Source: an uncultured Oscillospiraceae bacterium
Lineage (GTDB): Bacteria > Bacillota > Clostridia > Oscillospirales > Oscillospiraceae
Assembly: GCA_947625355.1 (NCBI GenBank)
Contig: CANQOA010000005.1
Location: 18,713 to 82,712, forward strand
Reading direction: 5' to 3'
DNA length: 64,000 bases
The position numbers were made by a program, and so were the translations under genes. The stretch's first letter is position 1. Each line of letters begins with the position of its first letter. Positions 38,800 to 56,850 of this stretch are shown here, one piece after another. Under the pieces are notes generated by a model. The model was given only the letters and a program-made list of their open reading frames with translations. It was not told where the DNA came from and did no database searches.

Positions 38800-38828
38800 T
38801 TGATAACAGTGCGTAATTTATTTACTAT
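38800..38828 (+). promoter_or_regulatory. Possible promoter of the recombinase gene
   Basis: TTGATA and TACTAT are 17 bases apart, leaving a leader of about 150 bases. Confidence 0.4.
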
Positions 38829-38983: not shown

Positions 38984-39823
38984 ATGCGAATCATCAAGGA
39001 AAAACAACTGACAGACTTCTGCCTGTATATGAAAGAGGCGGAACACGCAAGTGCGACGGTTTCAAAGTATAAGCGGACCATTGAGGATCTCATGCTCTGG
39101 ATGGGCGGACGGGAAGTAACCAAGGAACTGGTGGTAGCATGGAAGGAGCATATCCTTGAACGGAACTATGCTCCGGCTACGGTAAACGGGATGCTGACTG
39201 CAGTGAATGTTTTCTTCAAGCACTATGGCTGGCATGACTGCATCGTAAAGATGCTGCGGCTCCAGCGCAGAGCGTTCAGGGACCCTGGCCGGGATCTGAC
39301 CAAGGAAGAATACGACCAGTTGGTAGACACGGCATATTCCCTTGGAAAGACCCGGCTGGCGCTCATCATGGAGACGATATGCGCCACAGGCATCCGAGTG
39401 TCAGAGCTACGGTTTGTCACCGTGGAAGCGGTCCAGCGCGAGAAAGCGGAGATCCGCTTGAAGGGAAAGATCCGCACCATTATGCTACCGGGGAAGCTCT
39501 GCCGAAAGCTGCTGAAGTATGCCAGAAAAAAGAAAATCGCCTCTGGTGAGATATTCCTCACCAGAAGCGGTAAGAGCTTAGGTCGTCATCAGATATGGTC
39601 GGAGATGAAATCCGTATGCGCTGCGGCGGGGGTGAACCCCAGCAAGGTATTCCCTCACAACCTCCGGCATCTGTTCGCCACCGTGTTCTATCGATCCTGC
39701 CATGACATCGTAAAGCTGGCGGACGTGCTGGGGCACTCGTCCATCGAGACAACGCGGATCTACCTCATCACCACTGGCGAAGAACATGCCCGCATGTTGA
39801 ACCAATTAGGATTGGTCAGCTAG
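38984..39823 (+). CDS. Tyrosine recombinase, probable invertase of the adjacent switch
   Basis: A compact 279-residue tyrosine recombinase. The N-terminal SAM-like core-binding domain spans about 1-90; the catalytic domain shows R138 (TGIRVSEL), H225 and R228 (HNLRH), H251 (LGHSS) and the nucleophile Y260 (TRIYLI). Stand-alone enzymes of this size in Firmicutes and Bacteroidetes often invert promoters of surface genes. The stop codon is only 5 bases from the first copy of a repeat that recurs inverted at 40166-40190, so the enzyme probably acts on these sites. A GGGGG ribosome site precedes the ATG. Integration next to tRNA-Leu is an alternative role. Confidence 0.88.
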   Translation: MRIIKEKQLTDFCLYMKEAEHASATVSKYKRTIEDLMLWMGGREVTKELVVAWKEHILERNYAPATVNGMLTAVNVFFKHYGWHDCIVKMLRLQRRAFRDPGRDLTKEEYDQLVDTAYSLGKTRLALIMETICATGIRVSELRFVTVEAVQREKAEIRLKGKIRTIMLPGKLCRKLLKYARKKKIASGEIFLTRSGKSLGRHQIWSEMKSVCAAAGVNPSKVFPHNLRHLFATVFYRSCHDIVKLADVLGHSSIETTRIYLITTGEEHARMLNQLGLVS

Positions 39824-39828: not shown

Positions 39829-39853
39829 GACACGGAATAAAGATTGCGTAGCG
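39829..39853 (+). repeat. Recombination-site-like repeat, copy 1 (direct)
   Basis: GACACGGAATAAAGA followed by TTGCGTAG, starting 5 bases after the recombinase stop. It has the same orientation as copy 2 and is inverted relative to copy 3; the second half is more diverged. Confidence 0.8.
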
Positions 39854-39903
39854 TCTCATTTTGAAATGCACATAATTATAACACGTTCCGAGACTTTTAG
39901 CAA

Positions 39904-39928
39904 GACACGGAATAAAGAGTACGTAGGC
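39904..39928 (+). repeat. Recombination-site-like repeat, copy 2, left end of the invertible segment
   Basis: GACACGGAATAAAGAGT followed by ACGT. It matches the complement of copy 3 over 17 continuous bases plus further CGT matches. Confidence 0.85.
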
Positions 39929-39949
39929 ACAAATCCCACAAGTTACCCT

Positions 39950-39978
39950 ATTCTAGCACTTTCCCACACATCTGGCAA
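39950..39978 (-). promoter_or_regulatory. Sigma-A promoter inside the invertible segment
   Basis: On the minus strand TTGCCA and TAGAAT are separated by exactly 17 bases, with a TGC extended -10. Transcripts would leave through repeat copy 2 and run antisense to the 3' end of the recombinase gene. Confidence 0.8.
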
Positions 39979-40044
39979 GAGGGAAAAGCCCCCTGTTTCC
40001 AAATTATTTGACCTGTTTGTGCCTCAAAGGGCAATACAATAAGA

Positions 40045-40069
40045 CCGTTGAAAAAGTGGTCTTCAACGG
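40045..40069. other. Small hairpin within the switch segment
   Basis: CCGTTGAA pairs with TTCAACGG around a 9-base loop. Confidence 0.5.
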
Positions 40070-40096
40070 CCTGGATAACTGCGTCCTGATTTCCTA

Positions 40097-40132
40097 ACAG
40101 CCGCCCTGCATGTCCGCATGTAGGGCGGCTGT
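40097..40132. terminator. Strong hairpin within the switch segment
   Basis: ACAGCCGCCCT pairs with AGGGCGGCTGT, extended by GCATG/CATGT, with a TCCG loop. There is no T run on either side, so it may act as an attenuator or insulator rather than a classical terminator. Confidence 0.6.
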
Positions 40133-40165
40133 CTCTGTCATGCGCTTAAGATCGCCGCGCAGAGA

Positions 40166-40190
40166 ACGCACGCACTCTTTATTCCGTGTC
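40166..40190 (-). repeat. Recombination-site-like repeat, copy 3 (inverted), right end of the switch
   Basis: ACTCTTTATTCCGTGTC is the exact complement of the first 17 bases of copy 2, preceded by the imperfect ACGCACGC part. Confidence 0.85.
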
Positions 40191-41452: not shown

Positions 41453-41487
41453 AGAGCGTCATTTCAGGGGATCTGAAATGGCGCTCT
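41453..41487 (+). terminator. Stem-loop after the surface protein gene
   Basis: A 15-bp stem (AGAGCGTCATTTCAG with its complement, one G-T pair) and 5-base loop lack a strong T run. It may attenuate, giving more surface protein than downstream enzymes. Confidence 0.6.
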
Positions 41488-41523: not shown

Positions 41524-44271
41524 ATGCAGCGTGTAAGAAACCATGCAGGGAACTGGTATGAGGCCGTGGGCGCATACGCAATCACTTTCATGTGTGTGTT
41601 ACTCGCGCTCTGGCTGACAGGGATCTACCCATTTGGTTCGTACAGTCTGCTCAAAATGGATTTGCTTCACGCATATGCGCCGGATTATCTGGAGATACGC
41701 CGTGCGTTGGCAGAGGACGGATGGGCGCTGTACTCCTGGAGTGGGATGTTGGGCAGAAACCTGTTGAGCGGCATTGTGACTGAAGCAGCCAGTCCGTTCA
41801 ATTTGCTGGCTGCTCTCTTTCCCGAACGGTATCAAGCGGATTTTTTCTCGGTCCTGACACTTTTAAAGATCCCGTGTCCGGCGGCGAGTTTCTGCGTGTA
41901 TGCCAAAAAGCGTCTGAATTGCGAGGGCACCGGCGCTATTTACTTCTCCGTTTCCTATGCGCTGTGCGCCTATGTAGCGGCGTTCCATTTCAATATCATG
42001 TGGCTGGACACCGTGATCGCCCTCCCTCTTGTCTTTCTCGGCATTGACAGGTTGCTGGATGAGGATGACGCCCGGCTCTATCTGGCAGCGTTGACCTACG
42101 CTGTTTTTACGAGCTACGGAACGGCGTTCCAGCTTTGTTTCTTCTGCGGACTGTATCTGCTATGCGGATGCATTCTGCGCAAGAGATACCGTGCGCGCTC
42201 TTTCCTGCGATTCGCTACGGCTTCTCTCCTAGTAGCGGGACTATGCGCGGTCACGCTGTTCGTGGTAGCGGACAGCTTTGATAACACGCAATATTTCCAC
42301 GAGACAGCGCCGGAGCTTGCTCTGAATTTTTCTCCGCTCCGATTCCTGGCGGCGCATTTTCTGGGAGGCTTTCCCTCCGTCAGATTTTACAGCGACAGTG
42401 CGCCGAACATCTACTGCGGCGTTTTGACACTTGTGCTGGTACCGCTGTTTCTGGGGTCCAGGCGAGTTTCGATTCGGGAAAAACTGGCATGGTGCGTGTT
42501 CACCGGGACAGTCTTGCTTTGTTTCTTTATCAGCTTGGCAACGTATGTCTTGCACGGACTACATTTTCCCGTGATGTTTCCACATCGGTACTCCTATGTG
42601 TACTCTTTCGCACTGCTGTCCGCAGCGGCGCGGACATACGGCAACAGGCAACGTATTTCACGGAAAGCTGCGATTCTGCTGGCAGCGGGGCTGTGTCTGC
42701 TGGTCATTTCCCTGTTTCTGCTCACGCCCCAGCGCGACGCTGCTAGCGCCTCTCTCCACACAAAGCTGTTTCCGGGTGTTGAAAGCACAGTCGGACCGCT
42801 CGTGCCGGGCCGGATTTCTTCTGGGTCGCTGGCGCTTAATATCGCACTGATCTGTGTGTATGTGGCGTTGCTTTGGGCGGACGAAGCCGCGGCAAAGCCG
42901 CTGGCGCACAAAGTCCTGACCTCGCTGCTGTTGATATGCGTGTGCGCAGAGGCAGTTCTTAGCTGTGAAAACGGCGTTAGCTACCTTCAGGAAGTCAAGC
43001 GGTCATGGTTCAATCAGGAGTTGCACGGTGACATGCAAGTCATTACCAAACGCTTGGATGAAGAGTCGGAGCTATACAGAGCGGAGTTTCATCGAAACCG
43101 TTCTCAGAGTGACAGCCGCGTGTACGGCTACAACGGTTTTTCAGCTCTCTGCGGAACCAGTGGAGGATACTCTGACGGATTGGAAACACTGATGCGGCGT
43201 CTTGGGCTGTGTTCCAGTTTCAATAATCTGATTTGGCAGGACCCCTCCCCTGTTGTGTCGAGCCTGTTCGCTCAGAAATATCTACTGGACGCGGGAACGC
43301 TGGCCAGCGAGAACGCAACGGCCTTTCGCTATCTGGAAAGCACAGGCAGCGTTGATGTATATGAAAACCCCTATGTTCTGCCGATAGGCTTCGCGGTCCC
43401 ACTGGACGCCAGCGCGTGGACGCCGGACGAGCATGCCGATCCATTTGACGTACAAAATGCGCTGTTCGGCAGCATGTCGGGACAACCGAATGTATGGGAC
43501 GATGTAGAGCCGAGCCTGCTCCAGTCGGAGAACCTGGATCTCTCCTATGGGGAGAAAACGGGAGAATACATCTTTGAGCTGCCGGGGTATCTCTCCTATG
43601 AGGATATCGCTTCTGGCATCCTTCCGCGGGCAGTGATACGCTACGCGCCCGACGAGGACGGGTTTATTTCGTTTTATGTTCATGGTACGAGCGTTTCCAG
43701 AGCGGTGGCGCGCGTCAACGGAGAGACTGTTTCTTCTCTATCTGTCCCCTGGGGGAATACCGGCCTGAACGCGGGTTTTGTGGAAGCTGGCGACACGGTG
43801 GAGATCGTGCTTGATCTCGATTCCATTCCAGACGGAGGAGAGCGCGAAATGGTGAGGCAAGGTGTGCTTACCGTCCATGCGGCCCGGCTGGATATGGACT
43901 TGTACGCAAAGGGCATCACACAGCTAAAAAACCGCAGCTTTCATGTCGAGAGCTACGACCGCACACATATCAATGGGTTGATCTCCTGTGATGAGGAGTG
44001 TCTGCTGTGGACATCCATTCCATACGATCACAACTGGCACGTCGTCGTGGATGGTGAAACAGTTCAAACGGATCGTTGGGACGATGCGCTGCTGTCTGTA
44101 ACATTGTCTCCGGGGAATCACAGCATTGAGTTTGAGTACAGGATGGACAGCCTGCCTGTAGCCGCTTGCGTCAGCCTTATGACACTTGTGTTGGCTCTGG
44201 TGTTTTGCCGGAAGTCTGCGAGTGAGCATGGTGATAAAGATATACGCGAAAAACGCATACGAATCGACTGA
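41524..44271 (+). CDS. YfhO family membrane glycosyltransferase (GT-C type)
   Basis: A 915-residue protein with about 13-14 membrane helices and a large C-terminal extracytoplasmic domain. The first loop has KMDLLHAYAPDYLEIRRAL and GRNLLSGI, matching the YfhO family in which an early Asp is catalytic in GT-C folds. YfhO proteins transfer sugar from undecaprenyl phosphate to teichoic acids or other wall polymers. With GtrA (45046) and GT2 (56851) it would complete a three-component surface glycosylation system. The ribosome site is weak, so the start is provisional. Confidence 0.8.
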   Translation: MQRVRNHAGNWYEAVGAYAITFMCVLLALWLTGIYPFGSYSLLKMDLLHAYAPDYLEIRRALAEDGWALYSWSGMLGRNLLSGIVTEAASPFNLLAALFPERYQADFFSVLTLLKIPCPAASFCVYAKKRLNCEGTGAIYFSVSYALCAYVAAFHFNIMWLDTVIALPLVFLGIDRLLDEDDARLYLAALTYAVFTSYGTAFQLCFFCGLYLLCGCILRKRYRARSFLRFATASLLVAGLCAVTLFVVADSFDNTQYFHETAPELALNFSPLRFLAAHFLGGFPSVRFYSDSAPNIYCGVLTLVLVPLFLGSRRVSIREKLAWCVFTGTVLLCFFISLATYVLHGLHFPVMFPHRYSYVYSFALLSAAARTYGNRQRISRKAAILLAAGLCLLVISLFLLTPQRDAASASLHTKLFPGVESTVGPLVPGRISSGSLALNIALICVYVALLWADEAAAKPLAHKVLTSLLLICVCAEAVLSCENGVSYLQEVKRSWFNQELHGDMQVITKRLDEESELYRAEFHRNRSQSDSRVYGYNGFSALCGTSGGYSDGLETLMRRLGLCSSFNNLIWQDPSPVVSSLFAQKYLLDAGTLASENATAFRYLESTGSVDVYENPYVLPIGFAVPLDASAWTPDEHADPFDVQNALFGSMSGQPNVWDDVEPSLLQSENLDLSYGEKTGEYIFELPGYLSYEDIASGILPRAVIRYAPDEDGFISFYVHGTSVSRAVARVNGETVSSLSVPWGNTGLNAGFVEAGDTVEIVLDLDSIPDGGEREMVRQGVLTVHAARLDMDLYAKGITQLKNRSFHVESYDRTHINGLISCDEECLLWTSIPYDHNWHVVVDGETVQTDRWDDALLSVTLSPGNHSIEFEYRMDSLPVAACVSLMTLVLALVFCRKSASEHGDKDIREKRIRID

Positions 44272-44320
44272 GGCGGCGGTGAATTTCGGAGAAATACTGA
44301 GACGGCTTTATTTTATCAGG

Positions 44321-45049
44321 ATGAATGTAGAAAGAAATAAGACAAATATAGGAGATGAACCGGAAGCGATCGTCGAAAGGCTGTTGACGAGATATCCAGA
44401 GATGACTGACTGTATCGAGGAAATCGACAGGGCCTATGACGTACTGGTCCAATGCTTTCAGAACGGGGGCCGGTTGCTGGTAGCCGGTAACGGAGGGAGT
44501 GCGGCTGACAGCGAACATATTTCCGGAGAATTGATGAAGTCTTTTCGTTTTCGGAGAGGAATAGACCCCAAAACCAGATTTTCTCTGAAAGAGCTATTCG
44601 GTGCTGAAGGAGAGCGTCTTGGCACGCAGTTGGAGGGTGCGCTTCCCGTGATCCCGCTCGTATCGTTTACATCTGTTTTGACAGCATACTCCAATGATAC
44701 CAATCCCGCTGCGGCTTTCGCTCAGGTGCTATACGGGTGCGGTCGTCCAGAAGATGTTTTCTTGGCCATTACTACATCCGGTAATTCGGAAAACATATAT
44801 AAGGCGTTGATGATCGCCCGCGCGAAAGAAATATCTACGATTTGCTTAACAGGCAGAGACGGTGGGCCTTGTGGGCGCATTGCCGATGTGACGATACATG
44901 TTCCGGAGGATGAAACATATCTCATTCAAGAACTGCATCTTCCCGTGTACCATGCCCTATGCGCAATGCTAGAGGCTCACTTTTTCAGACAGCAGAACGG
45001 ACGGATAACCGATGTTCTTCCGAGTAGACGCGATAGGGTCAGGGTGTGA
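44321..45049 (+). CDS. gmhA: Sedoheptulose 7-phosphate isomerase (GmhA-like, SIS domain)
   Basis: From MNVERNKTN the protein has 242 residues; frames starting further upstream run into yfhO. The SIS domain shows LLVAGNGGSAADSEHISGEL and ITTSGNSENIYKAL, hallmarks of GmhA. It converts sedoheptulose 7-phosphate to D-glycero-D-manno-heptose 7-phosphate, the first step of heptose nucleotide synthesis. Downstream genes encode the remaining GDP-heptose enzymes, which makes the call specific. It is longer than E. coli GmhA because of an insertion after the first motif that is common in Firmicute homologues. The ribosome site is poor. Confidence 0.88.
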   Translation: MNVERNKTNIGDEPEAIVERLLTRYPEMTDCIEEIDRAYDVLVQCFQNGGRLLVAGNGGSAADSEHISGELMKSFRFRRGIDPKTRFSLKELFGAEGERLGTQLEGALPVIPLVSFTSVLTAYSNDTNPAAAFAQVLYGCGRPEDVFLAITTSGNSENIYKALMIARAKEISTICLTGRDGGPCGRIADVTIHVPEDETYLIQELHLPVYHALCAMLEAHFFRQQNGRITDVLPSRRDRVRV

Positions 45050-45477
45050 TTTTTGTTATGGCAGTGCGAGATTTACTGAAAAAGTATCAGGAACTGATCG
45101 CCTATGGGATCGTAGGTGTATTGACGACACTTTTGAATCTGGTGGTGTATTTTGTCCTCACATCCTGGTTAGGCGTTCATTACATCCTGTCGGATATTAT
45201 CGCTTGGGTCATCTGTTTTGTTTTCTCGTTTGTGACGAACAAACTCTATGTATTCAAAAGCGCTACATGGACATTCAACGCACTGTTGAAGGAAGTTTCA
45301 AAGTTCTTTACCAGCAGTGTTTTTACCGGCATCGTGGATGTGGGACTGCTGTACGCCATGGTGGATCTTATGAAGATCAACGGAACGGTATCAAAGCTCA
45401 CAGATAATGTAGTTATTATTATTTTGAATTATATTTTGCGAAAACTCTGGGTGTTCAAGAAGAAGGCCGAGGAATGA
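45046..45477 (+). CDS. GtrA family membrane protein (flippase-like)
   Basis: 143 residues with four membrane helices: LIAYGIVGVLTTLLNLVVYF, SDIIAWVICFVFSFVTNKLYVF, a third around 85-105 and a last VIIILNYILRKLWVF. The conserved NKLYVF and NYILRKLWVF pattern is diagnostic of GtrA/GtcA. These proteins are thought to flip polyprenyl-phosphate sugars. The GTG at 45046 overlaps the gmhA stop; ATG at 45058 is an alternative start. Confidence 0.88.
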   Translation: MIFVMAVRDLLKKYQELIAYGIVGVLTTLLNLVVYFVLTSWLGVHYILSDIIAWVICFVFSFVTNKLYVFKSATWTFNALLKEVSKFFTSSVFTGIVDVGLLYAMVDLMKINGTVSKLTDNVVIIILNYILRKLWVFKKKAEE

Positions 45478-45524
45478 ATGGCCGCGGCATACAAAGCGGT
45501 ATTTCGTAAACGGAGGGTGCAGCT

Positions 45525-46403
45525 ATGTATCTGATCGTTGGCGGTGCGGGGTATTTGGGCACGAATCTGATAGAGGCAGTTCTGGAGAAAACGGATGAGG
45601 CAGTTTGTGCCACTGCAAGAAATATCCCACCTTTTCCCCCGACATCCCGTATCTGTTGGGAGGCATGCGATATTGAGGATCGCGATTCGGTGGATCGGCT
45701 GGCGGACAAGCTGGCTGGTGAGTCCTTAAAGGTGGTAGTTTGCGCGGCGTTCCACCACCCCGATGCCGTGCAGCAGCAGCCCAGAAAGGCTTGGAACGTC
45801 AATGTGACGTCTCTTTCATATCTTCTGAATCGCCTGGAAAATGTGAAACGGCTGTTTTATCCATCTACGGATAGTGTTTATGGAGAAAGCGAGGGCGGGC
45901 ACCACTTTCAAGAGGGAGACAAGACCACGCCTGTCAACATTTACGGCAGGCAGAAAACGGTCGCAGAGCAGTTGGTGAACGGTTATGGATACAATGTGGC
46001 TCGTTTCCCCTTCCTTATCGGACCCAGCCTGGTTCCGGGGAAACCGCATTTTTATGACCGCATTGCGGAGACGATTCTCCGTGGAGAGCCTATGGAGATG
46101 TTTCAGGATTCATACCGGTCTACTCTATCGTTCGCCTCTGCCGCCCGATTTGTTGTTGATCTGATAGAGATGGTGGCCCCGGTTCCGCAGATAATAAACA
46201 TCTGTGGGGACGATGATTTGAGCAAGTATGATGTGGGACTGATGATCGCACGAAAACTAAATGTCCCGAAGGATCTAATCGTACCTATTTCTATAAGCGG
46301 CAAGCAAGGGATTTTTGAGACCGCCCGTGCGCAGTCCACCCTGATGGACAACAGCCTCCTCAAGTCCGTGTTGGGTCTGAAACGGATAGAATTGGAGCTT
46401 TGA
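45525..46403 (+). CDS. NAD-dependent sugar epimerase/dehydratase (SDR)
   Basis: A 292-residue extended SDR. The Rossmann motif is GGAGYLGTNLIEAV; DSVYGE follows the active serine region, and YGRQK supplies the Tyr and Lys. It resembles RmlD/4-ketoreductase-type enzymes, but the product cannot be assigned from sequence. It probably modifies a nucleotide-activated heptose. The GGAGGGTGCAGCT ribosome site fits, and the stop overlaps the next frame. Confidence 0.8.
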   Translation: MYLIVGGAGYLGTNLIEAVLEKTDEAVCATARNIPPFPPTSRICWEACDIEDRDSVDRLADKLAGESLKVVVCAAFHHPDAVQQQPRKAWNVNVTSLSYLLNRLENVKRLFYPSTDSVYGESEGGHHFQEGDKTTPVNIYGRQKTVAEQLVNGYGYNVARFPFLIGPSLVPGKPHFYDRIAETILRGEPMEMFQDSYRSTLSFASAARFVVDLIEMVAPVPQIINICGDDDLSKYDVGLMIARKLNVPKDLIVPISISGKQGIFETARAQSTLMDNSLLKSVLGLKRIELEL

Positions 46404-46429
46404 AAATAGTAAGCGGAGAGAACGGCGAT

Positions 46430-47689
46430 ATGAAAGTGGTGGTTTCGGCTGGCGGAAAGGGGACGCGGATCTCCAGTGTGGCCAGCACCATTCCGAAGCC
46501 CATGATCTCTATCTGTGGAAAGCCGGTACTGGAACATCAGGTTGAATGCCTTCGCCGGCAGGGTTTCCGTGACTTCATATTTACGGTGGGGCATCTGGGA
46601 CAGCAGATACAGGATTATTTTGGGGACGGCTCAAGATTCGGCGTCACGATTACATATTACGTCGAGAGAGAACCTCTAGGAACTGCTGGGGCGTTGGTGG
46701 CGCTTCGGGAGCAATTGAAAGAAGATTATCTTCTGATAAACGGTGATTTGATTTTTGACGTGGATATAGGGCGGATGATCCGTTTCCACCAGCAGAAGAA
46801 TGCCGCTGCTACACTGCTGACGCATCCGAACAGCCACCCTTACGATGGGGCGATCATAGAAGCGGACAAAGATCACAGGATCATCCGTTGGCTCAACAAA
46901 GAGGAAGATCGCGGCCTGTATGAGAACAGAGTAAATTCTGGGATACACATTCTTTCACCCCGGCTGTTCGACCGGTTTACAAAGGTCGAAAGGATCGATT
47001 TAGACAGGGAGGTCTTAAAGCCAAGGATTCCAGAAGGCGATGTGTTTTCCTATGACTCCCCTGAGTACATTCATGACATGGGCACACCGGAGCGCTATCG
47101 ACAGGTATGCGAGGCGGTGAAGAACGGGCTTCCGGCCCGCCGAAATCTTTCCCACCCACAAGAAGCGATATTTCTGGACCGCGACGGAACAATCAACGTA
47201 CATAAAGGTTTTGTGACGCGCTGGGAGCAGATCGAGTTGCTGCCGGGCGCAGCGGAGGCAATTGCTCGTATAAATCAGAGCGGGTATTTAGCAATTGTGG
47301 TGACAAATCAGCCGGTCATTGCCAGAGGTGAGTGTACCTGGGAAGAACTGTGGGATATCCACCGGGTCTTGCAGATGAAGCTGGGCGAGAAAGGTGCGTA
47401 TCTGGACGATATTTTAATCTGCCCTCATCATCCGGACAAAGGTTTCCCTGGTGAACGGTCCGAGTACAAGATCGACTGCAGCTGTAGAAAACCCAAACCA
47501 GGTCTGCTGTTGGAGGCGGCGAAAAAATACAACATTGACCTGACCCGATCCTATATGGTCGGGGACAGTGAAAGAGATACCCTTGCAGGAGAAGCAGCGG
47601 GCTGCCAGAGTGTTCGCATCGGGGAAAGCGGCAGGTTTGAGTCGCTGTCGGCGTTTATAAATACATTGTTCGATTACGAGAAAAGTTAG
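46430..47689 (+). CDS. Fusion of heptose-1-phosphate guanylyltransferase (HddC) and heptose bisphosphate phosphatase (GmhB)
   Basis: Translation is placed at ATG 46430 after an AGCGGAG site. Residues 1-235 form a nucleotidyltransferase (VVVSAGGKGTRISSVASTIPKP, LINGDLIFDVD, NSGIHILS). Residues 245-419 are a HAD phosphatase of the GmhB/histidinol-phosphatase type: FLDRDGTINV, VVTNQPVIARG, zinc-binding CPHHPD and CSCRKPKPG, and MVGDSERD. Together they would turn heptose 1,7-bisphosphate into heptose 1-phosphate and then a nucleotide heptose, GDP being likely by analogy with HddC. The fused arrangement is compact and unusual. Confidence 0.87.
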   Translation: MKVVVSAGGKGTRISSVASTIPKPMISICGKPVLEHQVECLRRQGFRDFIFTVGHLGQQIQDYFGDGSRFGVTITYYVEREPLGTAGALVALREQLKEDYLLINGDLIFDVDIGRMIRFHQQKNAAATLLTHPNSHPYDGAIIEADKDHRIIRWLNKEEDRGLYENRVNSGIHILSPRLFDRFTKVERIDLDREVLKPRIPEGDVFSYDSPEYIHDMGTPERYRQVCEAVKNGLPARRNLSHPQEAIFLDRDGTINVHKGFVTRWEQIELLPGAAEAIARINQSGYLAIVVTNQPVIARGECTWEELWDIHRVLQMKLGEKGAYLDDILICPHHPDKGFPGERSEYKIDCSCRKPKPGLLLEAAKKYNIDLTRSYMVGDSERDTLAGEAAGCQSVRIGESGRFESLSAFINTLFDYEKS

Positions 47690-47699
47690 GAGAATACCT

Positions 47700-48722
47700 G
47701 TGGTTATTACAAAGACCCCGTTCCGCATGTCTTTTTTCGGAGGGGGAACAGATTATGAGCCGTTTTTTCGGGAATACGGCGGAAGTGTGATATCGACCAC
47801 GTTTGATAAGTATTGCTATGTGACGGTCAGACATCAACCTCGTTTTTTTGACTATGCAAACCAGGTCACCTATAACGTCATTGAGCGAACAAGGAGCGTT
47901 GATGAGATAGAGCATCCTGTAGTGCGAAACGCTATGAAGATGCTGGATATGCATGAGCTTCGTATCACCTATGACGCGGACTTGCCTGCTCGTTCCGGTT
48001 TGGGCAGCAGTTCCTCTTTTACAGTGGGGCTGCTCAACGGCTTTTATGCACTGAAAGGGAAAAACAAAAGCAAAAGGACCCTGGCCGAAGAGGCTATCTA
48101 TATTGAGCGTGAGCTGTGTGGAGAAAGCGGCGGTTGGCAGGATCAGATCGCTGTCGCATATGGCGGTCTTAACCGCATCGATTTCTCCAGCGAGGGTTTT
48201 GCCGTTCATCCTCTGGTCGTTCCCAAAGCGAGGATGCAGTCATTGAACGAACACCTCATGCTGTTCTTTACCGGCTTTTCCAGGTTTAGCAGCGATATTG
48301 CCACGGCTCAGATGTCCGCCATGAAAGATAAGCGGCAGGATCTGCTGGAGATGTTGAAGCTGGTGGATGTGAGCCAGGAAATTCTGACGGGGAAAGGCGA
48401 CATTTGTGAATTTGGGCGCTTGCTTGATTATACATGGAAACTGAAGAGCGGCCTTACGAGCAAGGTAACAAATGAGGCAATAAACAAAATTTACGCAGAT
48501 GCGATAAAAGCCGGCGCCATCGGTGGGAAGCTGCTGGGTGCCGGGGGCGGAGGATTTCTGCTTTTATTTGTCGAACCAGACAAACAGTCGGCGGTCCAGA
48601 AGGCCGTGGGACCATTGCTCAGGGTCCCGTTCAAGTTCGAGACGGGCGGGACCAGTATCATGCATTATGAACAGGAAGAATGGTCACGGGCCGATGCAAT
48701 AGATGAACTTGTAAACGTGTGA
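47700..48722 (+). CDS. hddA: GHMP kinase, D-glycero-D-manno-heptose 7-phosphate kinase (HddA-like)
   Basis: 340 residues starting with GTG after AGGAG. Family features: FRMSFFGGGTDYEPFF (substrate loop of heptose/fucose kinases), PARSGLGSSSSFTVGLL (ATP loop) and IGGKLLGAGGGGFLLLF. FFGGGTDY is typical of HddA and related heptose kinases. It phosphorylates C1 of heptose 7-phosphate. Its position between the HddC-GmhB fusion and a 4,6-dehydratase supports GDP-heptose synthesis. Confidence 0.88.
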   Translation: MVITKTPFRMSFFGGGTDYEPFFREYGGSVISTTFDKYCYVTVRHQPRFFDYANQVTYNVIERTRSVDEIEHPVVRNAMKMLDMHELRITYDADLPARSGLGSSSSFTVGLLNGFYALKGKNKSKRTLAEEAIYIERELCGESGGWQDQIAVAYGGLNRIDFSSEGFAVHPLVVPKARMQSLNEHLMLFFTGFSRFSSDIATAQMSAMKDKRQDLLEMLKLVDVSQEILTGKGDICEFGRLLDYTWKLKSGLTSKVTNEAINKIYADAIKAGAIGGKLLGAGGGGFLLLFVEPDKQSAVQKAVGPLLRVPFKFETGGTSIMHYEQEEWSRADAIDELVNV

Positions 48723-48738
48723 AGGAGATAATTGCATT

Positions 48739-49752
48739 ATGAAAGCACTGATCACTGGCATGACGGGAATGGTTGGCTCCCATTTGGCAGATTATCTGCT
48801 GGCGAACACAGACTGGGATATTTATGGAATGCAGCGCTGGCGCAGTCCGTTGGACAACATCATGCATCTGATGGATCGAATCAATCACCACGATCGTGTA
48901 TTTATTGAGTATGGCGATCTGAACGATCAAGCGTCTCTGATCACGGTCTTGGATAAGGTGAAGCCGGATTATATTTTCCATCTGGCTGCGCAGAGCTATC
49001 CGCTGACCAGTTTTACCGCCCCGATAGATACGCTGAACACGAACATACTGGGAACCTGTCGCCTGCTGGAGAGCGTGCGGCTGTTGGGCCAGAAGCCTAT
49101 CATCCACGTTTGCGCTTCCTCTGAGGTGTTTGGTCGTATACCGCGGGAAAAGCTGCCGGAAGCCGGAATCCATGAGGACTGCCCGTTCCATCCTGCGTCC
49201 CCTTACGCGATCTCCAAGGTCGGAACGGATCTGGTCGGGCGCTATTATGCCGAGGCGTATGACATGACGGTAATGACCACGCGGATGTTTACGCACACCG
49301 GCCCCCGCCGCGGCGATGTGTTCCATGAGTCCACGTTTGCCAAACAGATCGCCATGATCGAAGTTGGGCTGCAGGAACCGGTGGTAAAAGTAGGGAACCT
49401 GGATTCCCTGCGGACGTATGCCGACGTGCGGGACGCAGTTCGGGCCTATTACATGCTTGTGACGGTGAATCCGGTAAAGGGCGAGTATTACAACATCGGC
49501 GGGACTTATACCTGTACGGTGGGTGACACACTGAACACACTGTTGTCTTTTTCTACAGTCAAGAATATCAGAATAGAAACGGACCCTCAGCGGCTCAGGC
49601 CCATTGACGCGGATCTCCAGGTCCCTGACTGTTCTAAGTTCACCGCTCATTCCGGTTGGAAGCCTGAAATCCCCTACGAACAGACAATGCTGGACCTGTT
49701 GAACCACTGGCGTGCGAAAATCAAACAGACGGGCGCATACATCGACCGCTAG
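48739..49752 (+). CDS. GDP-mannose/GDP-heptose 4,6-dehydratase family SDR
   Basis: A 337-residue extended SDR with TGMTGMVGSHLADYLL, SSEVFGRIP and YAISK active-site motif, and RMFTHTGPRRG, a signature of GDP-sugar 4,6-dehydratases. In this locus the natural substrate is probably GDP-D-glycero-alpha-D-manno-heptose, giving the 4-keto-6-deoxy sugar used by later epimerases. GAAGGAGAT lies 11 bases upstream of the ATG. Confidence 0.85.
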   Translation: MKALITGMTGMVGSHLADYLLANTDWDIYGMQRWRSPLDNIMHLMDRINHHDRVFIEYGDLNDQASLITVLDKVKPDYIFHLAAQSYPLTSFTAPIDTLNTNILGTCRLLESVRLLGQKPIIHVCASSEVFGRIPREKLPEAGIHEDCPFHPASPYAISKVGTDLVGRYYAEAYDMTVMTTRMFTHTGPRRGDVFHESTFAKQIAMIEVGLQEPVVKVGNLDSLRTYADVRDAVRAYYMLVTVNPVKGEYYNIGGTYTCTVGDTLNTLLSFSTVKNIRIETDPQRLRPIDADLQVPDCSKFTAHSGWKPEIPYEQTMLDLLNHWRAKIKQTGAYIDR

Positions 49753-50326
49753 GGGGGTAATCGCTACGGGCGTTCATACTGTATCAACGGCCAACAAGAA
49801 AAAAACAGCGCTTTCTTTGTTATCTGCGGTCATCGTGGCCGTTGCGTTGAGCGTTGCTCTTTATTACCTGTTCCAGATTGAACCTCACTGCAATTACAGC
49901 AGATATGTCCATGATGCAGAGATAGACGGTTATCCCGCAGTAGAAGAAACTGAACAATACAGATATGAAATTGATTACGCTGACTATGTTAGAGATGACG
50001 TAGGCAACATCTCCGACTATTTCGGCCTGATTCGGATATCCGGCTGGGAAGTTGCCAAACAAGAAGAAGGCTGGGGTTCAAATATGAAGGGGCTTCTACT
50101 GGAATCAGACGACTGCGCGTACCGGGTCGATACAGAGATGAAGAAAGAAATTGAAATACCGTATCTAGACCAGTCTGATGCTGAGGACAAGTCGCTGAAT
50201 GTAGCTTTTTTCACTTATATTCCGCAGGATTCGATTTCGGCAGGCAGTTACAGAGTTGGAATTCTCGTTAAGGAAGAACAAATTGACAAAGTTCTGTGGA
50301 CTGAAAATCGAATAGAAGTGTTATGA
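49712..50326 (+). CDS. Hypothetical membrane-anchored protein
   Basis: An unrecognised protein of up to 204 residues with one membrane helix near the N-terminus (ALSLLSAVIVAVALSVALYYLF) and an acidic extracytoplasmic domain rich in Tyr and Asp (CNYSRYVHDAEIDGYPAV). The only in-frame start before the helix is GTG 49712, which overlaps the previous gene by 41 bases; GGGGGGTAATC after that gene's stop suggests the true start could be a rare codon near 49770. A structural or regulatory partner of the glycosylation machinery is possible. Confidence 0.55.
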   Translation: MRKSNRRAHTSTARGVIATGVHTVSTANKKKTALSLLSAVIVAVALSVALYYLFQIEPHCNYSRYVHDAEIDGYPAVEETEQYRYEIDYADYVRDDVGNISDYFGLIRISGWEVAKQEEGWGSNMKGLLLESDDCAYRVDTEMKKEIEIPYLDQSDAEDKSLNVAFFTYIPQDSISAGSYRVGILVKEEQIDKVLWTENRIEVL

Positions 50327-50365
50327 CAATTGCTTATCGAAATACTGGTTATGGGACATAAATAA

Positions 50366-52276
50366 ATGTTATTTTTGATGTTGTTTTGCGGCTTGTTTCT
50401 GTTAATCAGTTTGGGCTGCTTCGCAGTCGTCATGCGGAAACGGCTGTCTCGCCAAATGATAATGGGGATATGCATTGTTTCATTTGCAATTTCGGCTTTG
50501 TTCCCCATGCGATATATTCTATGTAATCCCATTCTAAAAGATCAAGTGACTATCACCGCTTTGCGGGAGCGAAATGACGCTTCTTTGGCTCTAGATGTTA
50601 TTATACACTATATCGATTCCAATTATTCTGAAAGAAGGATTGAGAATCCGGTTGAAGGAAAGTGGGCTTGGTGGGGCGGTGGTTATGTATGGTCCGAACC
50701 TTGGGAAGAAAAGGGACTGGAACCAACAGATTCTATTGTTTTTGATATCCCCGTCGGAGATAACCGTGCAATTGTGTTTTCAACTGGCCCAAGCTGCGGG
50801 ACAGCGGAGGTATCTTGCATGGGTATTTCCCAAAAGATTGATCTGTATAGCGCGGAAGAAGTATATTATCCAGTTCAACTCCCGGCATCTAAGCATGCTG
50901 ATTTCATAAAAGATTTGGGACTGCGGGCTGCTGTCTTTTCCTGCCTAGAAGTTTCGATTGTTATTCTAGTGTCGCTACTCGCTGGTTTTCTAAATAGAAA
51001 GACAAATTGGCGACGTCTCTTGAAATGGAAGTATGAAGCCTTCGTATTTGTGTTAAGTTGGATTAACATAGTTATTATGGGTAGATATCCAGAAGGATAT
51101 ACTTACTCTCTTACATATTATTTAATGCCATACGAGCGTGGCTTTGGGTCGAGAGGGCTGCTAGGTGCGGTTACTTCAGTATTAGGAGGACCATATATAA
51201 GTCAAAGAGGTATAATCCGTTACGTCTTTGTTTTCTTAACCTTTGCCTACCTTTTCTTTAGTATTTTGATTGTTAGGCTAGCAAAAAAAGAATCTGATTG
51301 GCGGATGGGCCTTTTTTGGGTTCTGCTTTATTTACTAACTCCGCTAATGTTCCTGGACATTTTTGATGACACGCGAGACTTGTATCTTGTAATCCTTTTT
51401 TTGATAAGTGTAATCCTTATAAACAAAAATCGCTTTGTACAATTGATACCAATTATTTGCGTCCTGATGATATTGCTCAATGAGACAAGTAGCGTGTTCT
51501 TTGTCGCCCCCCTACTAGCTCTTCTATTATATTCCTTTGTGAAAGAAAAAGATTTTGGCTATCTGTTTTCGTTCGTCAGTAGCGCAGCATTCACCTGTTT
51601 TACCACCTTATGGATCGTTTTTCTGGATAAGGAGAAACTGATACCGATTGACAGTTGTTTTGCTCACATGTCGCTACATACAGATATAGCGTTAGACTAT
51701 AACGCTTTTAGAGCAGAATATAGAGATTCCAGTGCTACTATTCGAGATTATGCGTATTGGATGGGAAGCCAAATTCCGTATTTTCAGCATCACGAATTAC
51801 TGATAACTTCTATACTGTTTTTCATTTTGATTCTTCCCTTCGTGCTCCTTGTAGTGATGTTATGGAAAGCAGTATACTTCGCCATCTTGGAAAATCAAGT
51901 TTATAAAAGGCTTGTGCCCCAAAGTGGGGAACGCAATACACCGTTTTGGCTGGTTAAATTTCTATACTGGATTCTTTTGTTGTCTTCCTGCGGCGGTGTG
52001 ATATGTATGTTAATGGCATGGGATTACCTTCGTTTTGCCTATTTTATCATGATTGCCGCTTTAGCAATTATCTTTACGCTAATTCATAAAGAAAACCTTT
52101 CATTACAGATTGATGACTTATACTTATTCACTCCACCAAAACGAGGTTTCCCAATACCTCCATTCGCTATATTGTTATATATGAAATTCTGGGGAACGGT
52201 TGCTTGTTTTGGGCCAGACACGAAATTATTACTGAATATAACCACGATTATAAGGGATTTTTTCAAAATCAAGTAA
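50366..52276 (+). CDS. Polytopic membrane protein of the glycan locus
   Basis: A 636-residue protein with two N-terminal helices flanking a soluble loop of about 140 residues, then roughly eight to ten helices. Motifs include YYLMPYERGFGSRGLLGAV, a short catalytic-like FDDTRDLY and ILLNETSSVF. The pattern (large loop with Arg/Asp, helices rich in aromatics) resembles polysaccharide polymerases or GT-C transferases, but no family is recognised. Base composition is much more AT-rich than the neighbours, pointing to a separate origin. A clear ribosome site is missing. Confidence 0.75.
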   Translation: MLFLMLFCGLFLLISLGCFAVVMRKRLSRQMIMGICIVSFAISALFPMRYILCNPILKDQVTITALRERNDASLALDVIIHYIDSNYSERRIENPVEGKWAWWGGGYVWSEPWEEKGLEPTDSIVFDIPVGDNRAIVFSTGPSCGTAEVSCMGISQKIDLYSAEEVYYPVQLPASKHADFIKDLGLRAAVFSCLEVSIVILVSLLAGFLNRKTNWRRLLKWKYEAFVFVLSWINIVIMGRYPEGYTYSLTYYLMPYERGFGSRGLLGAVTSVLGGPYISQRGIIRYVFVFLTFAYLFFSILIVRLAKKESDWRMGLFWVLLYLLTPLMFLDIFDDTRDLYLVILFLISVILINKNRFVQLIPIICVLMILLNETSSVFFVAPLLALLLYSFVKEKDFGYLFSFVSSAAFTCFTTLWIVFLDKEKLIPIDSCFAHMSLHTDIALDYNAFRAEYRDSSATIRDYAYWMGSQIPYFQHHELLITSILFFILILPFVLLVVMLWKAVYFAILENQVYKRLVPQSGERNTPFWLVKFLYWILLLSSCGGVICMLMAWDYLRFAYFIMIAALAIIFTLIHKENLSLQIDDLYLFTPPKRGFPIPPFAILLYMKFWGTVACFGPDTKLLLNITTIIRDFFKIK

Positions 52277-52354
52277 TATGACACGGGATGCAATCCTCTT
52301 TTTATAAATGTTGAACGTGGGCGCAACAAAAGCTAAACATAGGGAGGGTACTAT

Positions 52355-53242
52355 ATGATGGATAAATCCGATGTCGTATGGCTTCAGGAAAAATCGGCAG
52401 AACTGCGACACGAGCTGGTAGACTTGGTAAACTCAGCCGGTTCTTCACATATTGGCGGGCCTCTTTCTGCTTGTGATGTGGTCACGGCGTTATTTTATCG
52501 TTTTTTGAATTATTCAAAAAAGAATGCGGACAGTCCGGATCGGGATCGCTTCGTTCTCAGCAAGGGTCATAACGGCGACCTACTTTACTGCGTTTTTGCT
52601 GATTTGGGTTTCTATCCATTCGATTTGCTGATGGACCAGTTTAAAAAGAACGGGGGTCAGTGGGGCGAACATCCTAACCGGCACTATAATCCAGGATTTG
52701 AGTGTTCCACTGGGTCCTTAGGCCATGGGCTCCCTTTGGCAGCGGGTATGGCGATGGCGGCCAAGCTGGATAAACGCAAGAACAGAATTTACTGCCTGAC
52801 CGGCGACGGTGAGCTGCAGGAGGGCTCCAACTGGGAGACCATCATGTGCGCGGCGCGGCACGGATATGACAACCTTGTCCTGATCGTGGACAAGAACCAG
52901 GCACAAGGTACCCACATGGTATCCGACCTGTGTGACGATGAAAACCTGGAGCGACGGCTGGAGGATTTTGGCTGGAACGTATTCAGTGTACCGGACGGCA
53001 ACGATATGTTCCAGCTTTGCGAGACGTTCCAAGCCCTTCCGAAGCCCGACCAAACGGCCAAACCGGTCTGCGTGGTCCTGCACACGGTAAAGGGCAAGGG
53101 CGTGGACTTTATGGAGGCAGATCCGGCCAACTGGCATGCAGGCGGCTTTAAAGGAGATCGGTTGGAACTAGCGCATGCTTCTATCGACCGCTGGCTGGAA
53201 GAAGAGAAGAAAAAGGCAGCCAGCTTGCCAGTCTCGAACTGA
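52355..53242 (+). CDS. Transketolase, N-terminal (TPP-binding) subunit
   Basis: 295 residues matching the N-terminal half of transketolase: HIGGPLSACDVVTALFY, SKGHNGDLLY and the TPP motif GDGELQEGSNWE through VDKNQ. It pairs with the next gene to form a two-subunit enzyme. In this locus the likely job is to supply sedoheptulose 7-phosphate to GmhA; a two-carbon branch transfer onto a nucleotide sugar is an alternative. GGGAGGG precedes ATGATG. Confidence 0.92.
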   Translation: MMDKSDVVWLQEKSAELRHELVDLVNSAGSSHIGGPLSACDVVTALFYRFLNYSKKNADSPDRDRFVLSKGHNGDLLYCVFADLGFYPFDLLMDQFKKNGGQWGEHPNRHYNPGFECSTGSLGHGLPLAAGMAMAAKLDKRKNRIYCLTGDGELQEGSNWETIMCAARHGYDNLVLIVDKNQAQGTHMVSDLCDDENLERRLEDFGWNVFSVPDGNDMFQLCETFQALPKPDQTAKPVCVVLHTVKGKGVDFMEADPANWHAGGFKGDRLELAHASIDRWLEEEKKKAASLPVSN

Positions 53243-53255
53243 GGAGGGAGAAACA

Positions 53256-54239
53256 ATGCCACTGACTAGTGAAAGAGACAGTGAGTCCAAGATGGGCTCG
53301 GCCCGTTTTGCGGCCAACGATATGCTGTTTGAACTGGCGCGAAAGTATCCCAACGTGGTCGTTATGACCTGTGATAATTCCCAGGAGGGCACGCCTCTCT
53401 ACAGATTCTCTCAGGAGTTCGGGGAACGATTTATCGACACTGGCATTGCCGAGCAAAACACGGTCGGAATGGCCGCAGGACTTGCCCTGTCGGGGAAGAA
53501 AGTGTTTTGCCAGAGTTTTGCCTGCTTTTTGACTACACGGTCCATTGAATTCATGTATCTGGACGCGGCCTATAACAAGGCGCCGATTGTGTTCATGGGG
53601 ACACACTGTGGCGTCACGGCCTCCACATCCGGTCCTACGCACTTTGCGCTGATGGATATCGCCTATACAAGAGCAATGCCCAACATGACAGTGATCGCCC
53701 CCTCCGATCCACGCGTTTCCGCCAAGATCATGGAGCAGTCGATGTATTGGCCGGAGCCGATCTATCTCCGGTTGCCCAAGGGCGTAGAGCCGCTGGTCTA
53801 TGCGGATGATGTGGACGTACATATCGGCAAGGGGATCTTGGCAAAGGAAGGCAACGATATAACATTGATCGGCTGCGGCTGCGGTGTTTATCAATGCCTC
53901 CGGGCAGCGTGGAAACTGGAGCAGGAAGGTGTCAGTGCCAGGGTGCTGGATATACACACCATCAAGCCCATTGACGAGGATCTGATCCTTCGGGCTGCCG
54001 TAGAGACGAAGGGGATCGTCACCTGTGAGGACCACATGGTGACGGGTGGCTTAGGTTCGGCAGTGGCAGAGGTGATTACTGCCTCGCTGGATTCCCGGTC
54101 ACATGTTCCCGTGGTAAGGCTGGGCGTTCCGGATTGTTATCCTGCTCAGGGTGAAAAACCGGGGGACATATATAAGCGTTATGGCTACGATGCTGACGGC
54201 GTTTATACTGCCGCAATAGAGGTGCTGCGTTCAATCTAA
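53256..54239 (+). CDS. Transketolase, C-terminal subunit
   Basis: Starting at ATG 53256 (AGGAGGGAG upstream) the protein has 327 residues: ARFAANDMLFELARKYPNVV (partly quoted as ANDMLFELA), the TPP pyrimidine-domain motif DTGIAEQNTVGMAAGLA and a C-terminal transketolase_C domain with CEDHMVTGGLGSAVAE. It completes the split transketolase with the preceding gene, 13 bases away. An in-frame extension upstream lies inside the partner gene and is rejected. Confidence 0.92.
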   Translation: MPLTSERDSESKMGSARFAANDMLFELARKYPNVVVMTCDNSQEGTPLYRFSQEFGERFIDTGIAEQNTVGMAAGLALSGKKVFCQSFACFLTTRSIEFMYLDAAYNKAPIVFMGTHCGVTASTSGPTHFALMDIAYTRAMPNMTVIAPSDPRVSAKIMEQSMYWPEPIYLRLPKGVEPLVYADDVDVHIGKGILAKEGNDITLIGCGCGVYQCLRAAWKLEQEGVSARVLDIHTIKPIDEDLILRAAVETKGIVTCEDHMVTGGLGSAVAEVITASLDSRSHVPVVRLGVPDCYPAQGEKPGDIYKRYGYDADGVYTAAIEVLRSI

Positions 54240-54302
54240 GGAGCATATTTGCGCTTTAAATAGGCTCGCAGGCTATAAGTAAGTTCCCAATTATTTTATT
54301 AG

Positions 54303-54326
54303 TTGACCGTATCTTAAATCGGTCAA
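54303..54326 (+). promoter_or_regulatory. Inverted repeat before the 54340 gene
   Basis: TTGACCG and CGGTCAA flank a 10-base loop and abut the AAAGGAGG ribosome site. It could affect translation or be an operator. Confidence 0.4.
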
Positions 54327-54339
54327 AAGGAGGATTATC

Positions 54340-55323: not shown

Positions 55324-55334
55324 GGCATGGGCTG

Positions 55335-56294: not shown

Positions 56295-56835
56295 CGCAGG
56301 ATACAAGCTGCAAAATGTGACGACGACGAAGCTGGGACGCTTCGCCGTCGTCTGCGGCCATGTCATGCGGGGAGGAAAGGAGCATCCATATTCTTACCTG
56401 CACGAGAAAAACTGCGTATGTATTTGTCCTATCTTCGAACAGGACGTCGTTCTGATTCGGCAGTATCGCTATTCGGTAAATGACTGGTGCCTGGAACTGC
56501 CGTGCGGGGCCATCGAGTACGGCGAGCATCCGGAACACGCAGCGGCACGCGAACTTCTTGAAGAAACTGGATGTGTGACGGAGCAGTTGACGCCGCTGGG
56601 GGACTGCTACGCCAGAGCAGGCATTTCGGATTGCAGAGTCTACTTCTATTTGGCGGAGTGCGATACGATGCGGGAGCAAGAACTTGATCCAACGGAAAGA
56701 ATCGAAAGGCTTCGTATTCCTATTGAGGATTTTGATGCGGTGATTGCTTCTGGTCAGTTTGCGCAGTTGATGGGCATTGCTTGCTGGCTGAGGGCAAAAG
56801 GCCGCCTTACCGCGCATAGAGAAAATAATTGGTAG
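56287..56835 (+). CDS. NUDIX hydrolase
   Basis: Starting at ATG 56287 (AGGAAAA upstream, 8-base overlap with the previous gene) the protein has 182 residues. The Nudix box is complete: GAIEYGEHPEHAAARELLEE, with the E-E pair for metal binding, followed by TG. ADP-ribose pyrophosphatase-type enzymes are the nearest class; here a GDP-sugar or sugar-nucleotide housekeeping role is plausible. Confidence 0.87.
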   Translation: MDNAGYKLQNVTTTKLGRFAVVCGHVMRGGKEHPYSYLHEKNCVCICPIFEQDVVLIRQYRYSVNDWCLELPCGAIEYGEHPEHAAARELLEETGCVTEQLTPLGDCYARAGISDCRVYFYLAECDTMREQELDPTERIERLRIPIEDFDAVIASGQFAQLMGIACWLRAKGRLTAHRENNW

Positions 56836-56850
56836 AGGAGGAAAACTCGG

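What the first reader, a model, noticed from the sequence alone, without database searches (positions are those of the whole stretch)
39904..40190. Invertible promoter controlling a surface-glycan operon
The sequence shows a tyrosine recombinase, a 287-bp segment with inverted 17-bp perfect repeats, and inside it an extended -10 promoter (TTGCCA-17-TAGAAT) aimed out of the segment. As given it points away from the glycan operon, and the fixed stretch before the operon lacks a promoter. Inversion would switch on about 20 kb of genes. This is the strongest candidate for an undescribed system in the window.
Basis: partly seen in the sequence, partly recalled or inferred. Interest (0 to 1): 0.9.

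Follow-up and report, generated by a model that had tools for sequence, protein, structure and literature searches.

The report
Flipping promoter with antisense-stopping recombinase gene
In a gut bacterium, a 287-base stretch of DNA carrying a promoter sits beside a recombinase gene and lies the opposite way round in a close relative, so it likely acts as an on/off switch for a surface protein and perhaps a sugar-coat gene cluster; in this clade of recombinases the gene's own codons also spell a predicted stop signal for the RNA that the promoter would make when it points the wrong way.

Summary
A tyrosine recombinase gene (38984-39823) is followed by a 287-bp segment (39904-40190) with 17-bp perfect inverted ends and an extended -10 promoter motif pointing back at the recombinase. 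In a same-genus genome (G308) the segment is inverted exactly at these ends, 286 of 287 bases identical, beside a recombinase identical in 278 of 279 residues. Inverted repeats follow the stop codon in 87 of 107 family loci, against 0 of 99 control stretches; 62 promoters point back, 25 forward. Three pairs of relatives keep both flanks in register with the segment reversed.

Invertible promoters are known. The antisense terminator and the three-site, two-promoter form make this a new variant. Flipping by this enzyme and expression were not tested.

The parts
38800..38828 (+). candidate promoter of the recombinase gene (TTGATA-17-TACTAT)
   Evidence: consensus scan only
38984..39823 (+). tyrosine recombinase gene, 279 aa; R138, K162, H225, R228, H251, Y260 invariant in an alignment of 20 sequences (its own protein cluster and 19 relatives)
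   Evidence: Pfam PF00589 E 1.8e-24; alignment A1; residues read in the window protein; calling these the catalytic set is recalled family knowledge
39528..39569 (-). predicted antisense intrinsic terminator inside the recombinase coding sequence (stem 39569-39538, T-rich tail ATTTTCTTTT)
   Evidence: 14-pair stem and T tail; family-wide synonymous-codon signal, pairing counts, strand test, clade limits
39829..39849 (+). site A, extra copy of the recombination site, 5 nt after the recombinase stop codon
   Evidence: kept in G308 and G317
39875..39903 (-). promoter P_A, TTGCTA-17-TATAAT with TG, pointing left, 46 nt from the outer edge of site A
   Evidence: -35 and -10 identical in G308 and G317
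39904..39924 (+). site B, left end of the invertible segment
   Evidence: recombinant junction seen in G308
39904..40190 (.). 287-bp invertible segment, here with its promoter pointing away from the downstream gene (OFF-like)
   Evidence: G308:C43:19222-19508 is its reverse complement, 286 of 287 bases
39950..39978 (-). promoter P_B, TTGCCA-17-TAGAAT with TG, pointing left, 46 nt from the outer edge of site B
   Evidence: all 29 nt identical in G308 and G317
40042..40072 (-). terminator-like hairpin upstream of P_B, in the promoter's direction
   Evidence: fold z -4.7
40097..40132 (.). strong hairpin inside the segment, no T-run on either side
   Evidence: fold z -4.9 (-) and -6.3 (+)
40170..40190 (-). 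site C, right end of the invertible segment
40310..41404 (+). first gene downstream of the switch: secreted S-layer-like protein, 364 aa, signal-peptide-like N-terminus
   Evidence: RBS and frame; 5 of 20 homologues, 30-44% identical, carry SLH domains, the protein itself matches no Pfam family; signal-peptide rule
41453..41487 (+). strong hairpin without T-run between the surface-protein gene and the glycan genes
   Evidence: fold z -5.3
41524..58880 (+). gene cluster, by its enzyme families for a surface glycan: YfhO-like membrane protein, relatives of GmhA, HddC/GmhB, HddA and GDP-sugar dehydratases, transketolase halves, Fcl-like reductases, NUDIX, GT2, amine oxidase; at least two ORFs without a Pfam match
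   Evidence: Pfam; NCBIfam relatives, the named pathway enzymes below their curated cut-offs

Best explanation
A 287-bp DNA segment that carries a promoter motif and lies between inverted sites beside a tyrosine recombinase gene stands in opposite orientations in two related genomes, and it is likely flipped by that recombinase so that its promoter would drive either the downstream surface-protein gene (ON) or RNA antisense to the recombinase (OFF). Shown: the sites, the promoter motifs, the inverted copy in G308, reversed segments between co-linear flanks in family members, and nucleotide-level conservation of a terminator-like hairpin on the antisense strand of the recombinase gene. Inferred: that the neighbouring recombinase does the flipping, that the promoters fire, that the OFF-state transcript (about 415 nt from P_B, about 340 nt from P_A) ends at the codon-embedded terminator, and that this confines or tunes antisense transcription over the recombinase. 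In this locus a tandem 75-bp unit (site A plus promoter P_A) lies outside the B-C segment and points left in both orientations seen, so antisense RNA would be made in ON and OFF alike unless an A-C inversion occurs. The glycan genes would be co-switched only if transcription passes the hairpin at 41453-41487.
For: Inverted copy in G308 with breakpoints at the sites, 286 of 287 bases, beside a recombinase that differs in 1 of 279 residues. The contig of G308 ends exactly at the outer base of the segment, which is what an assembler does when both junctions occur in the reads (inference). Pairs L040/L044, L040/L041 and L054/L074: both flanks plus/plus, segment minus. 53 of 53 homologous segment pairs agree between promoter direction and DNA orientation, 11 of them opposite (pairs share members and are not independent). 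IRs in 87 of 107 loci, against 0 of 99 and 1 of 107 in the controls. Promoter score >=10 in 73 of 87 segments, against 18 of 435 shuffled interiors. Antisense hairpin: mean z -2.81 against synonymous codon choice, 82% of 80 genes below -2, and apart from the overlapping window (-2.25) no antisense window of the gene below -0.79; 176 wobble pairs that form only on the antisense RNA against 21 only on the sense RNA, of 994 cells; Lys codons AAA 65-88% under the U-tract against 39% overall; strict scan 68 of 104 clade genes, 0 of 19 distant ones.
Against: No reads were examined. G308 shows only the left junction, and neither its downstream flank nor the surface-protein gene was found in that 79%-complete assembly. 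The window and G317 share one orientation, and the recombinase match in G317 covers residues 103-279 only. The window's own gene gives a modest codon-shuffle z (-1.32) in the 72-nt test, G308 -0.93. 36 of 104 clade genes fail the strict terminator scan. Loci with and without a detected strong IR carry the terminator alike (48 of 87, 12 of 20), and the distant recombinases, which lack it, have invertible-looking segments too (IRs in 13 of 18), so it tracks the recombinase clade and a switch can do without it. In the pairing count the number of further pair types is not above shuffles (17 against 15.3, 54 of 500). An earlier, looser comparison had one disagreeing segment pair (L020/L021).
Confidence: 0.82

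Rival explanations
1. The sites are attachment sites of an integrase-borne mobile element, and the inverted repeats do not serve to flip a promoter.
For: The protein is a Phage_integrase-fold recombinase, and a tRNA-Leu gene ends about 750 nt upstream of it, a usual integration target (recalled).
Against: The segment holds no recognisable gene (inspection); its reverse complement occurs precisely between the sites in G308; the recombinase-IR-promoter layout recurs in 87 of 107 loci; family pairs keep both flanks and reverse only the segment.
Confidence: 0.04
2. The segment is a decayed switch, frozen in the OFF-like orientation in this strain.
For: The window and G317 share one orientation; in G317 the recombinase match lacks the first 102 residues and the target gene is a remnant.
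Against: The window's recombinase is full length with the conserved residues; the nearly identical full-length recombinase of G308 stands beside an inverted copy; both promoters are conserved between the genomes.
Confidence: 0.08
3. The antisense hairpin is a by-product of codon or protein conservation (ASGEIFLTRSG motif) and not a terminator.
For: The peptide is strongly conserved, the sense strand also shows a weaker signal (mean z -1.27), and 36 of 104 clade genes fail the strict scan.
Against: The control keeps the protein and redraws synonymous codons; wobble pairs favour the antisense strand 176 to 21; Lys codons turn to AAA under the U-tract (65-88%; elsewhere 64% at most among positions with 30 or more Lys, 39% overall); sense-strand terminators in 1 of 123 genes, antisense in 73 of 123.
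Confidence: 0.2
4. The inverted copy in G308 is an assembly artefact.
For: The contig ends at the segment edge, and G308 is a fragmented genome of 79% completeness.
Against: The junction lies at the site to the base and carries the C-side bases on the left; family pairs show the same reversal with both flanks present.
Confidence: 0.06

Closest known systems
Inverton group 139 with invertase group 35 (Clostridia; PMC11892184, passages seen)
   Same: Short promoter-sized invertons in Clostridia next to a tyrosine-type recombinase/integrase; inversion measured there by reads, including Intestinimonas butyriciproducens DSM 26588 and Clostridium sp. D5. A relative of the window's cassette exists in I. 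butyriciproducens An565 (L046; 302-bp segment).
   Different: The passages seen mention no antisense terminator and no three-site form.
E. coli fimE-fimS-fimA switch (PMC9993118, passages seen)
   Same: An invertible promoter segment (314 bp) connects or disconnects surface-structure genes; it also carries a terminator that acts on the recombinase transcript (fimE), so orientation touches the enzyme as well. The gene order fimE-fimS-fimA is recalled.
   Different: fim uses 9-bp repeats and a Rho-dependent terminator inside the segment that acts on fimE mRNA; here the repeats are 17 bp and the conserved terminator is intrinsic, antisense and inside the recombinase coding sequence. The recombinase matches the DNA-invertase models PRK09870/09871 far below cut-off (24 and 23 bits against 221 and 222).
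C. difficile RecV-controlled switches, flagellar and cwpV (PMC7446863: passages; PMC2784873, PMC5386303: listing with start of abstract only)
   Same: Clostridial tyrosine recombinase, invertible segments upstream of surface genes, termination decides the OFF state.
   Different: RecV acts on several switches away from its gene (recalled); the flagellar OFF state rests on Rho within the leader (PMC7446863 abstract passage). Here the recombinase gene lies directly beside its segment.

Membership tests
Invertible promoter (inverton) | inverted repeats flanking a short segment | tested here: met
   17-bp perfect, 287 bp; family control
Invertible promoter (inverton) | promoter inside, directed out of the segment | tested here: met
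   sequence motif only; activity not tested
Invertible promoter (inverton) | both orientations exist at the homologous locus | tested here: met
   G308 left junction; both junctions in L040/L044, L040/L041, L054/L074
Invertible promoter (inverton) | both orientations within one population | not testable with these tools
   no reads held; the G308 contig end at the segment edge is only suggestive
Invertible promoter (inverton) | orientation changes expression of the neighbouring gene | not testable with these tools
   no expression data
Tyrosine recombinase | catalytic domain with the R-K-HxxR-H-Y set | tested here: met
   PF00589; invariant residues; the set itself is recalled
Inverton group 139 / invertase group 35 | IR motif and sequence clustering with that group | not testable with these tools
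   motif only in supplements; sizes in An565 do not match the published DSM 26588 element
E. coli fim switch | FimB/FimE-type invertase | tested here: not met
   NCBIfam tyrosine-type DNA invertase PRK09870/09871: 24 and 23 bits, cut-offs 221 and 222; that these models stand for the FimB/FimE type is recalled
E. coli fim switch | 9-bp repeats of a 314-bp element | tested here: not met
   17-bp repeats, 287 bp; fim values from PMC9993118 passages

The most novel reading that the evidence does not exclude
In this clade of gut-bacterial recombinases the OFF orientation of the switch is an active state: the flipped promoter makes a short antisense RNA over the recombinase's own gene, cut off by a terminator that selection has written into the recombinase's synonymous codons, so the switch reports its orientation back to its own enzyme. 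The three-site form in the window adds a second, fixed promoter (P_A) that uncouples this feedback from orientation.
Probability: 0.5. Interest if true: 0.75.

Novelty: new variant of a known kind. Interest (0 to 1): 0.62.

Why it matters
Invertible promoters are common in gut bacteria, but which enzyme flips which segment is often unknown (general knowledge). Here a recombinase clade comes with its own site pair and promoter next door, so enzyme and target can be paired by sequence. The terminator in the antisense codons is nucleotide-level evidence that transcription into the recombinase in the OFF state is frequent enough to be selected on, which makes an orientation-dependent feedback directly testable. 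An intrinsic terminator kept on the antisense strand of a coding sequence across many species would be unusual in itself.

Tried and rejected
A search of viral contigs for the 29-nt promoter P_B found nothing. No further copy of the sites (up to 2 mismatches in 15) or of the segment exists in the window's genome. A link to inverton group 139 through I. butyriciproducens An565 was tried: two cassettes of 302 and 305 bp, not the published 255 bp, so membership stays open. A cascade in which a second recombinase downstream owns a further inverton was looked for: no HxLRH...LGH motif was found in the up to 2.4 kb held downstream of each of the 87 segments, many of them with less. Antisense terminators in the matched stretches of the three other recombinases of the genome: none. 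Contig ends lie within 330 nt downstream of the recombinase in 16 of 123 loci and within 330 nt upstream in 5 of 123; suggestive of assembly breaks at the segment, not used as evidence. A first shuffle test for inverted repeats gave 59 of 2000; I take this to be palindromes, which it did not exclude; it is not used. The loose promoter comparison had one disagreeing pair (L020/L021, 45 nt, E 1.3e-5); one search used a stricter E (1e-6) and a promoter placed 20-100 nt from the segment end, and that pair fell out. Third sites: 10 of 87 loci, but reversed-arm controls gave 4 hits, so only the window, G308 and G317 are taken as certain. For the gene survey 65 proteins were scanned: the window's plus 64 of the 82 refs; 18 refs were left out (the window's own duplicate, another near-duplicate, several of the longest surface proteins, and short or doubtful ORFs), so surface proteins are under-counted there. 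The sliding codon test used the first 80 of 119 genes; the pairing count used the first 70 of 117 distinct regions plus the window. RNAalifold's own consensus kept 10 of the 14 pairs, energy -6.5 kcal/mol.

Literature: searches (open-licence PMC only) listed no paper that I recognised as describing an antisense terminator inside an invertase gene; I saw passages of five papers and otherwise titles and abstract starts, so this is weak evidence of absence.

Full report
What is there. A 279-aa tyrosine recombinase gene (38984-39823) is followed by three copies of a 21-bp site: A 39829-39849 (+), B 39904-39924 (+), C 40170-40190 (-). B and C bound the 287-bp segment of the finding. Inside, on the minus strand, lies P_B (TTGCCA-17-TAGAAT, TG before the -10). 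Between A and B lies a second promoter of the same build, P_A (TTGCTA-17-TATAAT, TG before the -10). They are the two best promoter-like sites in 38200-45000 (10 of 12 matches each; the region has 6 such sites against 5.0 in shuffles), both point left, and each -10 lies 46 nt from the outer edge of its site. A and B thus head two 75-bp units (39829-39903, 39904-39978), each running from a site to the end of its -35 box, alike in site and promoter but otherwise diverged. The segment also holds a terminator-like hairpin in the direction of P_B and a strong hairpin without a T-run.

It inverts. A search of 35 same-genus genomes with 39824-40310 found matches in 3: the window's own, G317 and G308. 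Contig C43 of G308 carries a recombinase identical in 278 of 279 residues, site A and P_A in place, and then the 287-bp segment reversed, 286 of 287 bases identical, with breakpoints at the sites. Promoter P_B therefore points downstream there. The contig stops at the outer base of the segment, so the right flank is not seen; a break exactly there is expected if both junctions occur in the reads (inference). G317 (same contig as L103, by number and length) has the window orientation, but its recombinase match covers only residues 103-279 and its target gene is a remnant.

It is one of a family. Relatives of the recombinase occur in 81 of 300 genomes drawn from the taxonomic family at E<=1e-30. 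Among 123 distinct loci, 107 had at least 320 nt downstream; 87 of these have inverted repeats (score >=12) starting near the stop codon, against 0 of 99 control stretches 700 nt further on and 1 of 107 shuffles. A promoter score of at least 10 occurs in 73 of 87 segments against 18 of 435 shuffled interiors; 80 of 87 have a 17-nt spacer, 69 of 87 a TG before the -10; 62 point back at the recombinase and 25 forward. Of 53 homologous segment pairs, 53 agree between promoter direction and DNA orientation and 11 are opposite (pairs share members; one weaker pair disagreed). In L040/L044, L040/L041 and L054/L074 both flanks align plus/plus and the segment minus, with boundaries at the repeats; L054 and L074 are two loci of one assembly. 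So members of this family flip, and what flips is the segment.

What it controls. The first gene after the segment (40310-41404) encodes a 364-aa protein with a signal-peptide-like start. It matches no Pfam family, but 5 of 20 homologues, 30-44% identical, carry S-layer homology domains. In the family 28 of 82 first downstream ORFs start with a signal-peptide-like stretch by a simple rule; of 65 scanned, 14 match the DUF4379 zinc finger, 9 a recombinase domain, 3 SLH, 3 ResIII. In the window a strong hairpin without a T-run (41453-41487) lies between this gene and the YfhO, heptose and GDP-sugar genes (41524-58880). No plus-strand promoter-like site was found from 40190 to 50838. Co-switching of the glycan genes is therefore plausible but unproven.

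The antisense terminator. Leftward transcripts from P_B or P_A would run into the recombinase gene. There, at 39569-39538 on the minus strand, lies a 14-pair hairpin with the tail ATTTTCTTTT, listed first of 20 terminator-like sites of 38200-45000 (6.3 expected). In the family, against synonymous codon choice that keeps the protein, the antisense fold of this stretch has mean z -2.81, with 82% of 80 genes below -2; the overlapping next window has -2.25 and no other antisense window of the gene is below -0.79; the sense strand has -1.27 there. In a wider 72-nt test over 120 genes the mean is -1.99, the window's own gene -1.32. On 71 sequences 93.6% of 994 cells pair and 19 cells show changes on both sides against 6.0 in shuffles; the number of further pair types is not significant. 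Wobble pairs that exist only on the antisense RNA number 176, those only on the sense RNA 21. Lysine codons under the U-tract are AAA in 65-88%, against 39% overall and at most 64% at the other positions with 30 or more lysines. A strict scan finds an antisense terminator in 73 of 123 genes and a sense one in 1; at 275-305 nt from the stop codon, 68 of 104 genes with at least 55% identity (the window, G308 and G317 are among the 104) have it and 0 of 19 more distant ones. The distant ones have segments with repeats as well (13 of 18; close ones 74 of 89). It thus looks like an addition of this clade that a switch can do without. It is equally common in loci without a detected strong repeat (12 of 20, against 48 of 87), several of which have 9-bp repeats at the usual place.

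How it most likely works. OFF: the segment promoter points left; its RNA would be antisense to the last ~290 nt of the recombinase message and end at the codon-embedded terminator. ON: after flipping, the promoter would drive the surface gene. Terminator-like hairpins upstream of the promoter in 50 of 87 segments (7 of 261 shuffles; 27 face against the promoter, 13 with it, 10 both) would help to keep recombinase and target transcripts apart. In the window's version P_A stays left of the flipped part, so antisense RNA would continue in ON. Transcription, flipping by this enzyme and any feedback are inferred.

Compared with what is known. Closest in print are inverton group 139 with invertase group 35 in Clostridia (PMC11892184, passages), inverted by read data but not shown to be this family, and the fim switch, where a Rho-dependent terminator inside the segment acts on fimE mRNA (PMC9993118, passages). 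The kind is known; the antisense intrinsic terminator in the enzyme's codons and the three-site, two-promoter form are the features that I did not find described (searches named in Tried and rejected).

Noticed in passing
39904-40190 versus L121: The segment is 286/287 identical between the window and G308 while the flank 38394-39924 is 95.8% identical; recent exchange or strong constraint, unexplained.
   Followed up: partly
L122 (G317:C58): Decayed relative: recombinase match lacks residues 1-102, target gene is a remnant, a gene with a serine-recombinase-like start (recalled motif) follows; sites and both promoters are kept.
   Followed up: partly
L053, L080, L089, L098, L135, L150: Possible extra copies of the site at other family invertons (some may be chance); L080 also has a leftward promoter motif between its two left sites.
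   Followed up: partly
downstream genes of the family segments (alignment A3): The gene behind the switch matches a recombinase domain in 9 of 65 loci (PF00589), without the HxLRH...LGH motif in the scan.
   Followed up: partly
downstream genes of the family segments (alignment A3): 14 of 65 switched genes encode DUF4379 treble-clef zinc-finger proteins of unknown role.
   Followed up: no
38141-38522: DNA similarity to G308 begins at the tRNA-Leu gene (38144-38230), and short internal repeats lie in 38280-38522.
   Followed up: no
61352-62563: Xre-like HTH gene followed by an M78 peptidase (IrrE-like) gene, a usual pair of phage or mobile-element regulation (the pairing is recalled).
   Followed up: no
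G020 (C1, C2, C6, C8, C17, C25, C42): A family genome with eight matches to the recombinase at 43-45% identity, apparently a multi-copy set.
   Followed up: no
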